Source: Tahibacter aquaticus (lineage in GTDB: Bacteria > Pseudomonadota > Gammaproteobacteria > Xanthomonadales > Rhodanobacteraceae). From it: DNA of 64,000 nt. The notes under the pieces are model-generated. The model was given only the letters and a program-made list of their open reading frames with translations, had not been told where the DNA came from and searched no databases. The stretch spans positions 1 through 64,000 of the forward strand of contig NZ_SNZH01000010.1 in NCBI RefSeq assembly GCF_004363655.1, given 5' to 3'. The translations under genes and the position numbers were made by a program. The number at the start of each line of letters is the position of its first letter. Position 1 is the first letter of the stretch. Positions 17,403 through 19,256 of this stretch are shown here, one piece after another.

Positions 17403-18926
17403 TCACTTCAGGCTGATGGTGGTGTTGACGCCGAGGCTGGGCGCCGCATCGTCGAACCAGCGCGCGGTGACGGTCTTGGTCTGGGTGTAGAAGGTGACCG
17501 CCTGCTTGCCGTAGGGACCCAGGTCGCCAAGCTTGGACGCGCGCGATCCGCTGAAGGAAAACAGCGGCACCGGCACCGGAATCGGCACGTTGATGCCGAC
17601 CTGGCCGACGTCGATGTCTTCCTGGAAACGCCGCGCCGCCGCGCCGGACTGGGTGAACAGCGCAGTGCCGTTGCCATTGGGATTGGCATTGACCAGCGCG
17701 ATCGCCTCGTCCAGCGTTTCCGCCGCGAGCAGGATCAGCACCGGGCCGAAGATTTCCTCGTCGTAGATACGCATGCCCGGCTTCACGCCGGAGAAGATCG
17801 TCGGCGCAACAAAGTTGCCTTGTTCATAACCGGGCACGACGGGGCGGCGGCCGTCCAGCTCCAGCGTCGCGCCCTGTTCCACGCCGGCAGCGATGAGGCT
17901 TTCCACGCGCTCGCGTGCGGCGCAGGAGATCAGCGGACCGACGTCGGTGGCAGGCTCGGTGCCGCCGCTGACCTTCAGCGTCTTCGCCTTGGCCACGAGG
18001 TCGCCGATCCATTCCCGCGCGGCGCCGACCAGCACTGCGGTCGAGGCGGCCATGCAGCGCTGGCCGGCCGCGCCGAAGGCGGCGCCGGCCAGGGCGTTGA
18101 GGGTCTGTTCCTTGTTCGCATCCGGCAGCACGACGGCGTGGTTCTTCGCACCCATCATGCATTGCACGCGCTTGCCGGCCAGCGCAGCACGCTGGTAGAC
18201 ATGCGTGCCGACGCGGGTGGAGCCGACGAAGGAAACCGCCTTGATGTCGGCGTGATCGCAGATCGCATTGACCACGTCTTCGCCGCCGTGCACCACGTTG
18301 AGCACGCCGCGGGGAATGCCGGCCTGCAGGGCCAGCTCGACCAGGCGCATGGTCACCAGCGGATCCTGCTCGGATGGCTTGAGCACGAAGGTATTGCCGG
18401 TGGCGATGGCCATGGGGAACATCCACAGCGGAATCATGGCCGGGAAGTTGAACGGCGTGATGCCGGCGCAGACGCCGAGCGGCTGCAGCAAGGTATACGT
18501 ATCCACTCCGCCGGCGACATTGTTGGCCAGCTCGCCCAGCTGCAGGTTGCCGATCGCCGCGGCGTGCTCGACCACTTCCAGGCCGCGGAATACGTCGCCT
18601 TCCGCATCGGCCAGGGTCTTGCCCTGCTCGGCCGTGAGCAGCGCGGCCAGTTCACCCATGTGCTCGCGGATCAATTGCTGGTACTTGAGGAAGATGCGTG
18701 CACGCGCACCGATCGGTGTCTTGCGCCAGCTGGCGAAGGCACGCTTGCCGGCGGCTACGGCCGCGTCGACTTCCTCGGCCGTGGCCATGGGCACACGCGC
18801 CAGCACGACCTGGGTAGCCGGGTTGACCACCTCGCGCCAGTGCGAAGAACGGGATTCGACGAATTCGCCGTCGATCAGAAGTTTTACCGTCGCTACCGCC
18901 GCTGCGGCGCGGTTCACATCATTCAT
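17403..18926 (-). CDS. mmsA: Methylmalonate-semialdehyde dehydrogenase (acylating)
   Basis: A 507-residue CoA-acylating aldehyde dehydrogenase that turns methylmalonate semialdehyde into propionyl-CoA, CO2 and NADH, the last step of valine breakdown. Diagnostic MmsA blocks are [43 protein letters not shown] and the catalytic-Cys segment GAAGQRCMA. First gene of the valine operon. The start MNDVN lies just after a GGAG at 18932-18935; an in-frame ATG at 19043 is far less likely because it lies in the leader between riboswitch and gene. A cobalamin riboswitch is the only regulatory element seen upstream. Confidence 0.95.
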
Positions 18927-19072
18927 TGCCGGTCTCCGTATCGCCCACCCGCGAAAAGAATGGGTATTGCGCAGACACGACAAGGCGAACCGATGCAAGG
19001 CAAAGCGCAGCGAATCCGCTCGTCTGGTTGCCCGCCGCAACACCCGAGTAGAAACGCCTTTCAGCGCCCGCC

Positions 19073-19256
19073 ACGGGCCGGTCTCCGGGCTTGCGAGCGA
19101 TGCGGACGCATCACCCCGGCAACCTTCCCGCGCGAACGCAGTGGCATGAGGCCGGGTTTTCTCGTTTACCGTTGCGGGGGCAGCGCCGGCATTGGGTTTT
19201 CACCCGCACCGGCTTCCCGTTTCACCCTGCTCGCCGAAAGCGGCAGGACACCTGTG
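19073..19256 (-). promoter_or_regulatory. Cobalamin (B12) riboswitch upstream of mmsA
   Basis: Read on the minus strand, the conserved blocks of the adenosylcobalamin aptamer occur in the right order: an ACAGGTG start (near 19255), GCCGGTGCGGGTGAAAACCC (19194-19213), GCTGCCCCCGCAACGGT (about 19168-19184), GCCACTG (19139-19145), GGGAAGG, and AGCCCGGAGACCGGCC near the 3' end (19076-19092). The next gene in transcription direction is mmsA, 147 bases on. This class normally represses B12 uptake, synthesis or B12-independent isozymes. The 11-mer CGGAGACCGGC of the aptamer end recurs at the mmsA ribosome binding site (18928-18938). Confidence 0.9.

What the first reader, a model, noticed from the sequence alone, without database searches (positions are those of the whole stretch)
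17403..19256. Cobalamin riboswitch placed directly upstream of a valine-degradation operon
All conserved aptamer blocks are present in order on the minus strand, and the next gene is mmsA, first of five co-directed valine-catabolic genes. Known cobalamin riboswitches mainly control B12 uptake, synthesis or B12-independent isozymes. Valine breakdown ends in propionyl-CoA, whose B12-dependent route goes through methylmalonyl-CoA mutase, so a metabolic link is possible, but switching off MmsA when B12 is plentiful is not an obvious logic. Either this is a new riboswitch regulon member or the switch was stranded after loss of a transporter gene such as btuB.
Basis: partly seen in the sequence, partly recalled or inferred. 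Interest (0 to 1): 0.75.

Follow-up and report, generated by a model that had tools for sequence, protein, structure and literature searches.

The report
B12 riboswitch on valine-breakdown operon
A vitamin-B12-sensing RNA sits in front of a set of valine-breakdown genes, apparently because these bacteria also own a B12-dependent enzyme for the same intermediate, so the RNA would switch on the B12-free route only when the vitamin runs short.

Summary
In detail: a full-length cobalamin riboswitch (RF00174, 111 bits) lies 132 nt upstream of mmsA, first of five genes leading from isobutyryl-CoA to propionyl-CoA. It is not stranded: the switch precedes mmsA in 16 of 39 genomes of the window's order with a close MmsA, and in 3 of 20 from the family of Undibacterium. 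Switch and IcmF go together: the 16 switch-bearing genomes have IcmF; the 23 others lack it and carry a divergent ScfR-like regulator. In the Undibacterium family 3 of 3 switch-bearing genomes have IcmF, against 1 of 17 others. A Luteibacter MAG without IcmF keeps promoter and leader but not the aptamer. Best reading: the operon is the B12-independent alternative to IcmF, repressed by B12 like metE or nrdAB. Polarity, ligand response and flux are inferred; exceptions exist and independent evolutionary changes are few. My searches found no report of this regulon.

The parts
19265..19293 (-). sigma-70-like promoter, TTGTCC (19293-19288), 17-nt spacer, TACACT (19270-19265), abutting and overlapping the aptamer's 5' edge
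   Evidence: T, A, C, A and the last T of the -10-like hexamer are invariant in 16 aligned leaders; missed by the stricter consensus scan, so inferred from conservation
19059..19270 (-). cobalamin riboswitch aptamer RF00174
   Evidence: 111.3 bits, E 4.8e-27, full model length; about 106 positions upstream of the leader hairpin are invariant in 16 genomes
19019..19048 (-). leader hairpin CTCG..GTTGC(GGCGG)GCAAC..CGAG; the G-rich loop could pair with the aptamer's CCCCC loop (L5-L13-type kissing contact)
   Evidence: GTTGC/GCAAC stem is standard in 16 sequences except one pair in one row; the kissing contact is inference from recalled structures
18934..18937 (-). Shine-Dalgarno GGAG of mmsA
   Evidence: GGAG invariant in 16 leaders; its sequestration is inferred, not shown
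17403..18926 (-). mmsA, methylmalonate-semialdehyde dehydrogenase (CoA-acylating)
   Evidence: TIGR01722 727 bits, cut-off 448.5
16217..17392 (-). acyl-CoA dehydrogenase, probably isobutyryl-CoA dehydrogenase
   Evidence: Pfam Acyl-CoA_dh N/M/1; substrate inferred from operon context, no equivalog cut-off passed
15426..16220 (-). enoyl-CoA hydratase (methacrylyl-CoA hydratase inferred)
   Evidence: PRK09076 446 bits, cut-off 286
14245..15429 (-). 3-hydroxyisobutyryl-CoA hydrolase
   Evidence: PRK05617 318 bits, cut-off 274; PF16113
13358..14248 (-). mmsB, 3-hydroxyisobutyrate dehydrogenase
   Evidence: TIGR01692 397 bits, cut-off 291.6

Best explanation
The riboswitch is the native 5' leader of the operon. 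The operon is the B12-independent route for isobutyryl-CoA (from valine): isobutyryl-CoA to methacrylyl-CoA to 3-hydroxyisobutyryl-CoA to 3-hydroxyisobutyrate to methylmalonate semialdehyde to propionyl-CoA, which the methylcitrate cycle (prpB and prpC present; its other genes not looked for) can take without B12. The cell also has IcmF, an adenosylcobalamin enzyme that turns isobutyryl-CoA into n-butyryl-CoA for ordinary beta-oxidation. With enough B12 the aptamer binds it and mmsA translation is held down, so isobutyryl-CoA goes through IcmF; when B12 is short the five-gene route comes on. This is the metE/metH and nrdAB/nrdJ logic raised to a pathway. Shown: aptamer, operon, IcmF, prpB and prpC, and co-distribution. 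Inferred: ligand response, repression as polarity, translational mechanism, flux, and that the acyl-CoA dehydrogenase takes isobutyryl-CoA.
For: Co-distribution: 39 genomes of the window's order with an at least 82%-identical MmsA: switch present in 16, IcmF over cut-off in the same 16, both absent in 23. Family of Undibacterium crateris: 20 genomes with mmsA (13 at 77-81% and 7 at 67-68% identity): 3 switch-bearing, all IcmF+; 17 without, 1 IcmF+ (switch confirmed by Rfam in L067, L227, L230). 22 of the 23 switch-less genomes have a cobalamin riboswitch elsewhere. Luteibacter MAG L039, no IcmF match: promoter and end of leader kept, about 210 nt with the aptamer absent. IcmF identity: NF045497 1682 bits against 1500; phmmer to 4xc6; isobutyryl-type Phe and Gln at the specificity sites. 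icmF lies near a gene of the Glu/Leu/Phe/Val dehydrogenase family. Two of this genome's three other switches precede metE and nrdAB, and NrdJ is present. queH (PF02677), a B12-independent alternative to epoxyqueuosine reductase, follows mmsB in 7 of 14 switch-bearing loci with downstream sequence and 0 of 6 switch-less ScfR-type loci with at least 3 kb downstream. The mmsA leader shares a G-rich hairpin and a similar ribosome-site end with this genome's btuB-like leader.
Against: Few independent changes: on a 49-row MmsA tree the switch changes 5 times and IcmF 6, with 2 starred independent pairs; on a 53-row tree 4, 5 and 3; neither can reach p 0.05. Exceptions: S. mori has the switch but only a fragment of icmF. 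IcmF without the switch: G157, G554, G173, G177, and G184/G186 with another operon layout. SD occlusion goes the wrong way in the window (unpaired 0.71 against 0.28 in shuffles) and is mixed over the set: lower in 11 of 16. No expression, binding or flux data. Enzymes named by profile only. The window's own operon has no queH.
Confidence: 0.76

Rival explanations
1. The operon is a bacterial B12-independent propionate shunt like that of C. elegans (recalled): the same five enzymes also oxidise propionyl-CoA via acrylyl-CoA, 3-hydroxypropionate and malonate semialdehyde to acetyl-CoA, replacing methylmalonyl-CoA mutase when B12 is short.
For: The five enzyme classes match step for step, and an OFF-with-B12 switch would fit.
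Against: The PF01642 protein found in this genome is IcmF, and prpB and prpC exist. mmsA loci in 11 genomes with an Mcm-like protein (match to the IcmF profile under its cut-off) and no IcmF, and in 2 with both, bear no switch: 0 of 13.
Confidence: 0.1
2. The switch activates rather than represses the operon with B12, coupling valine breakdown to B12 sufficiency.
For: An activating corrinoid riboswitch is named in the title of PMC10653944 (search listing only). The SD is predicted open in the window.
Against: The leader resembles this genome's btuB-like leader, a class held to be repressed (established knowledge, not tested here). Under activation the tie to IcmF and the presence of queH would have no clear reason.
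Confidence: 0.07
3. Stranded switch: a btuB-type gene was lost and the aptamer now merely precedes mmsA.
For: Only that mmsA is not a classical B12 gene.
Against: The arrangement, with conserved promoter, core, leader and 117-142-nt spacing, recurs in 16 genomes of 10 genera and in the Undibacterium family. In the 11 family loci gene-called, mmsA is the next gene after the switch.
Confidence: 0.03
4. The switch-IcmF association is shared ancestry only: one lineage happens to have both and one large clade lost both for unrelated reasons. (Not exclusive of the readings above.)
For: 28 of the switch-less rows form one clade; independent pairs are too few for significance.
Against: Seen again in the Undibacterium family (3 of 3 against 1 of 17), and an aptamer-less leader in an IcmF-less Luteibacter MAG.
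Confidence: 0.15

Closest known systems
Cobalamin riboswitch upstream of metE or nrdAB
   Same: RF00174 aptamer in front of a B12-independent alternative to a B12-dependent enzyme; both occur in this genome, and NrdJ, the B12-dependent counterpart of nrdAB, is present (metH was not searched)
   Different: Here the target is a five-enzyme catabolic pathway with a different end product, not a one-step isozyme
Cobalamin riboswitch of btuB / cob operons
   Same: Same aptamer family; this genome's btuB-like leader has a similar hairpin and ribosome-site end
   Different: Target is neither uptake nor synthesis
mmsA operons of Xanthomonas, Stenotrophomonas and Pseudoxanthomonas
   Same: Same five genes in the same order in the five named loci checked (L043, L044, L046, L053, L066); MmsA 82-86% identical
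   Different: No riboswitch, no IcmF match; a divergent ScfR-like regulator instead
B12-independent propionate shunt of Caenorhabditis elegans (recalled)
   Same: Same set of enzyme classes, used when B12 is short
   Different: Controlled there by transcription factors (recalled); here an RNA switch that tracks IcmF, not methylmalonyl-CoA mutase

Membership tests
Cobalamin riboswitch RF00174 | Covariance-model score over the gathering cut-off, full length | tested here: met
   111.3 bits against 31.5, model 1-189
Cobalamin riboswitch RF00174 | Binding of and response to cobalamin | not testable with these tools
   No binding or expression data
Cobalamin riboswitch RF00174 | Conserved 5' leader of an adjacent gene in relatives | tested here: met
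   16 of 39 genomes of the order with a close MmsA, 3 of 20 of the Undibacterium family
Regulon of B12-independent alternatives | A B12-dependent counterpart acting on the same substrate in the same genome | tested here: met
   IcmF over cut-off; shared substrate follows from enzyme names, not assayed
Regulon of B12-independent alternatives | Repression by B12 | not testable with these tools
   Polarity inferred from logic and resemblance to the btuB-like leader
Translational (SD-sequestering) expression platform | No intrinsic terminator between aptamer and gene | tested here: met
   0 found in 18850-19450 by a simple scan
Translational (SD-sequestering) expression platform | SD less accessible than in shuffled leaders | tested here: inconclusive
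   Lower in 11 of 16, higher in 5 including the window
IcmF (NF045497) | Equivalog score over cut-off; B12-binding, MeaB-type G and mutase domains | tested here: met
   1682 bits against 1500; PF02310, PF03308, PF01642
IcmF (NF045497) | Isobutyryl-type Phe/Gln instead of the Tyr/Arg of methylmalonyl-CoA mutase | tested here: met
   Both present in this genome's IcmF; the IcmF site numbers are recalled, the Tyr/Arg of MCM is from passages of PMC7238569
C. elegans-type propionate shunt | Replaces a methylmalonyl-CoA mutase route | tested here: not met
   No separate Mcm seen in this genome: two PF01642 matches and two PF01642 stretches in IcmF; prpB and prpC present

The most novel reading that the evidence does not exclude
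A previously unrecognised cobalamin-riboswitch regulon in which RNA chooses between two whole routes for isobutyryl-CoA, B12-dependent isomerisation by IcmF or the B12-independent mmsA route, with the switch gained and lost in step with IcmF and traded against an ScfR-type protein regulator. In some genomes the same operon adds queH, making it a module of B12-sparing enzymes.
Probability: 0.68. Interest if true: 0.78.

Novelty: new variant of a known kind. Interest (0 to 1): 0.72.

Why it matters
It would give IcmF a testable physiological partner: a B12-independent bypass in the same cell. [quoted passage not shown] this would be a pathway-level alternative for one of them. It extends cobalamin-riboswitch logic from isozymes to a choice between catabolic routes, and it suggests riboswitch and protein regulator replacing each other on one operon according to the metabolic setting, with the aptamer mostly absent where the B12 enzyme is absent.

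Tried and rejected
Methylmalonyl-CoA mutase link and C. elegans-like propionate shunt: my first idea, dropped when the PF01642 hit proved to be IcmF and prpB near-universal. Stranded switch: rejected by conservation. S. mori as an example of a decaying aptamer: its leader differs at 8 of 106 otherwise invariant positions, but that of G004, which scores 115 bits, differs at 13 of 119, and S. mori's other riboswitch also scores low, 73 bits, so I do not claim decay. Covariation in the leader: weak (covariation term -0.47; 3 of 23 pairs with changes on both sides). SD occlusion: mixed. Phylogeny-aware test: too few independent changes. Literature: nine searches naming mmsA, valine, isobutyryl-CoA mutase, IcmF, methylmalonate-semialdehyde dehydrogenase, propionate shunt, propionyl-CoA, QueH and QueG, eight of them with riboswitch among the terms, showed no such regulon in their listings. 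I read passages, not whole papers, of six papers: PMC3766115, PMC9600662, PMC10481361, PMC7238569, PMC6461909, PMC2667541.

Full report
WHAT IS THERE. The window holds one RF00174 match, 19270-19059 on the minus strand, full model length, 111.3 bits, E 4.8e-27. Downstream come mmsA (18926-17403), an acyl-CoA dehydrogenase, an enoyl-CoA hydratase, a 3-hydroxyisobutyryl-CoA hydrolase and mmsB, all on the minus strand and nearly touching or overlapping. Together these are the enzyme classes that lead from isobutyryl-CoA to propionyl-CoA. The acyl-CoA dehydrogenase passes no equivalog cut-off, so its substrate is inferred from context. The genome (7.27 Mb, 82 contigs) has three further cobalamin riboswitches: before nrdAB, before metE, and before a TonB-dependent receptor (btuB-like) followed by what looks like a cob cluster by inspection. 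A second, 52%-identical MmsA lies in a cluster that looks, by inspection, like reductive pyrimidine breakdown and has no riboswitch. The window's order is taken to be Xanthomonadales and its family that of Luteibacter, because G089 of the same family has the contig length of Luteibacter sp. OK325.

NOT STRANDED. Of 147 genomes of the family, 11 carry an 85-100% identical MmsA. All 11 have the five genes in order and a riboswitch just upstream of mmsA. An order-wide draw of 299 genomes gave 35 with a match at E <= 1e-230. Joined with the family set, 39 different genomes were checked upstream of mmsA: the switch is present in 16, from -312..-398 to -117..-142 relative to the start codon, and absent in 23. 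The rest of the operon was gene-called only in the 11; in three more of the 16 and two of the 23, mmsB was seen downstream. RF00174 itself confirms the adjacency in G000, G020, G004, G089 and G132 (coordinates), G306 and G410, L154, L210, L061 and L067, and L227 and L230. The leader alignment of the 16 shows an almost invariant TACACT-type hexamer at the aptamer's 5' edge, about 106 invariant positions before the leader hairpin, a near-invariant G-rich hairpin and an invariant GGAG before the start.

THE B12 COUNTERPART. This genome gives two PF01642 matches, of which the table lists one place. The protein there holds two PF01642 stretches, and the IcmF profile finds just this place, so I take it as the only member. 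It has 1166 aa and scores 1682 bits against a cut-off of 1500 for NF045497, IcmF, with B12-binding, MeaB-type and mutase domains and a strong match to the solved IcmF of Cupriavidus metallidurans. The Phe and Gln that mark isobutyryl-CoA mutase are present (the IcmF site numbers are recalled, the Tyr/Arg of methylmalonyl-CoA mutase is from passages of PMC7238569). A script pattern for both sites matched in 14 of 16 genomes tested; G028 and G032 each missed one, not examined further. In this genome a gene of the Glu/Leu/Phe/Val dehydrogenase family lies near icmF. PrpB is over cut-off in 140 of 147 family genomes, this one included, and its prpC is close by, so propionyl-CoA from the operon should have a B12-free exit; the other methylcitrate genes were not looked for. 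PF01642 matches occur in 135 of 147 family genomes, so an operon-free state with a PF01642 mutase is the commoner one and the operon is the optional part.

CO-DISTRIBUTION. In the 39 genomes, IcmF is over cut-off in exactly the 16 with the switch and unmatched in the 23 without; Fisher p 2.7e-11 ignores relatedness. All 23 switch-less loci, and none of the 16, show a divergent gene like the ScfR-type regulator of L046, at 63-99% identity; the domain PF09856 itself was tested in two of these proteins, L046 and L049. Of the 23 genomes, 22 have a cobalamin riboswitch elsewhere; G413 has none. As a second sample, the family of Undibacterium crateris was drawn: 145 genomes, 20 with MmsA at E <= 1e-220, 13 at 77-81% and 7 at 67-68% identity; the 7 have mmsB directly after mmsA. 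Three have the switch (G167, G523, G559) and all three have IcmF; of 17 without it, one has IcmF (G554, which has the ScfR-like gene); 8 of the 17 show that gene and none of the 3 does.

RESULTS AGAINST. I gave the genomes of 42 of these loci, chosen by me, to the IcmF search; 41 were held and searched, with G000. IcmF without the switch occurs in G157, G173, G177, G184 and G186. S. mori has the switch but only a 48-aa stretch like IcmF (62.5% identity), beside a dehydrogenase-like gene of the kind that neighbours icmF here. On MmsA trees the switch changes 4-5 times and IcmF 5-6 times, with 2-3 starred independent pairs, so relatedness alone cannot be excluded statistically. The SD-occlusion test is mixed and goes the wrong way for the window.

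A TELLING CASE. The Luteibacter MAG L039 has the operon but no switch, no IcmF match and no ScfR-like gene. Its upstream region still aligns with Luteibacter G089 in the promoter and in the last part of the leader through the start codon, while about 210 nt that include the aptamer are absent. Loss in this lineage is the simplest reading; a MAG can be incomplete, so absence of IcmF is less sure than in an isolate.

QUEH. In 7 of 14 switch-bearing loci with downstream sequence (G032, G020, G028, G090, G080, G410, G306) the next gene after mmsB is like queH; it is also there in L039 and S. mori, and in 0 of 6 switch-less ScfR-type loci with at least 3 kb after mmsB (L043, L044, L046, L053, L212, L214; L066, with 0.4 kb, shows none either). 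PF02677 was confirmed in four of the proteins. PMC6461909 calls QueH an alternative to the cobamide-dependent epoxyqueuosine reductase (passages). The window's own operon lacks it. This supports a B12-sparing operon, though the genomes are related.

HOW IT WORKS. Most likely B12 sufficiency folds the aptamer, the leader hairpin contacts it, and mmsA translation is repressed; isobutyryl-CoA then leaves through IcmF. When B12 is short the mmsA route runs and its propionyl-CoA enters the methylcitrate cycle. A simple scan found no terminator. The end of the leader and the G-rich hairpin resemble those before the btuB-like gene of the same genome. A propionate-shunt reading is disfavoured because 13 genomes with an Mcm-like protein, two of them also with IcmF, have no switch on mmsA. 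NrdJ is over cut-off in 18 of 19 switch-bearing genomes, this one included, so the nrdAB switch of this genome follows the same logic.

NOVELTY. PMC3766115 (passages) sorts cobalamin-riboswitch targets into B12 synthesis, B12 and precursor transport, cobalt transport and isozymes of B12-dependent enzymes. I found no report of a valine operon as target in the searches listed under Tried and rejected; most subscription papers are not in that library. The riboswitch is an ordinary member of its family; the target, and the choice between two routes, is the new part.

Noticed in passing
window 26117-26166 (-), gene 25781-26098 (-): Guanidine-II riboswitch (37.4 bits) just upstream of a roughly 105-aa gene that looks like a small multidrug-resistance-type exporter; such a pairing is known (recalled).
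   Followed up: no
L151, L152, L155, L156, L159, L210, L213, L039, L061, after mmsB: queH (B12-independent epoxyqueuosine reductase) follows mmsB in 7 of 14 riboswitch-bearing loci but not in the ScfR-type loci examined.
   Followed up: partly
L046 6497-7864 (-) and equivalents in 23 genomes of the order: Divergent ScfR-like regulator beside mmsA, never together with the riboswitch in the genomes sampled.
   Followed up: yes
L202 6954-7097: S. mori keeps only a 48-aa stretch similar to IcmF beside a dehydrogenase-like gene, while its mmsA riboswitch persists.
   Followed up: partly
L149 5957-10173: A second MmsA (52% identical) in this genome, between an aminotransferase-like and an amidohydrolase-like gene, in what looks like a reductive pyrimidine breakdown cluster.
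   Followed up: partly
L005 4696-5125: Cobalamin riboswitch before class I nrdAB in this genome, with a class II NrdJ elsewhere.
   Followed up: yes
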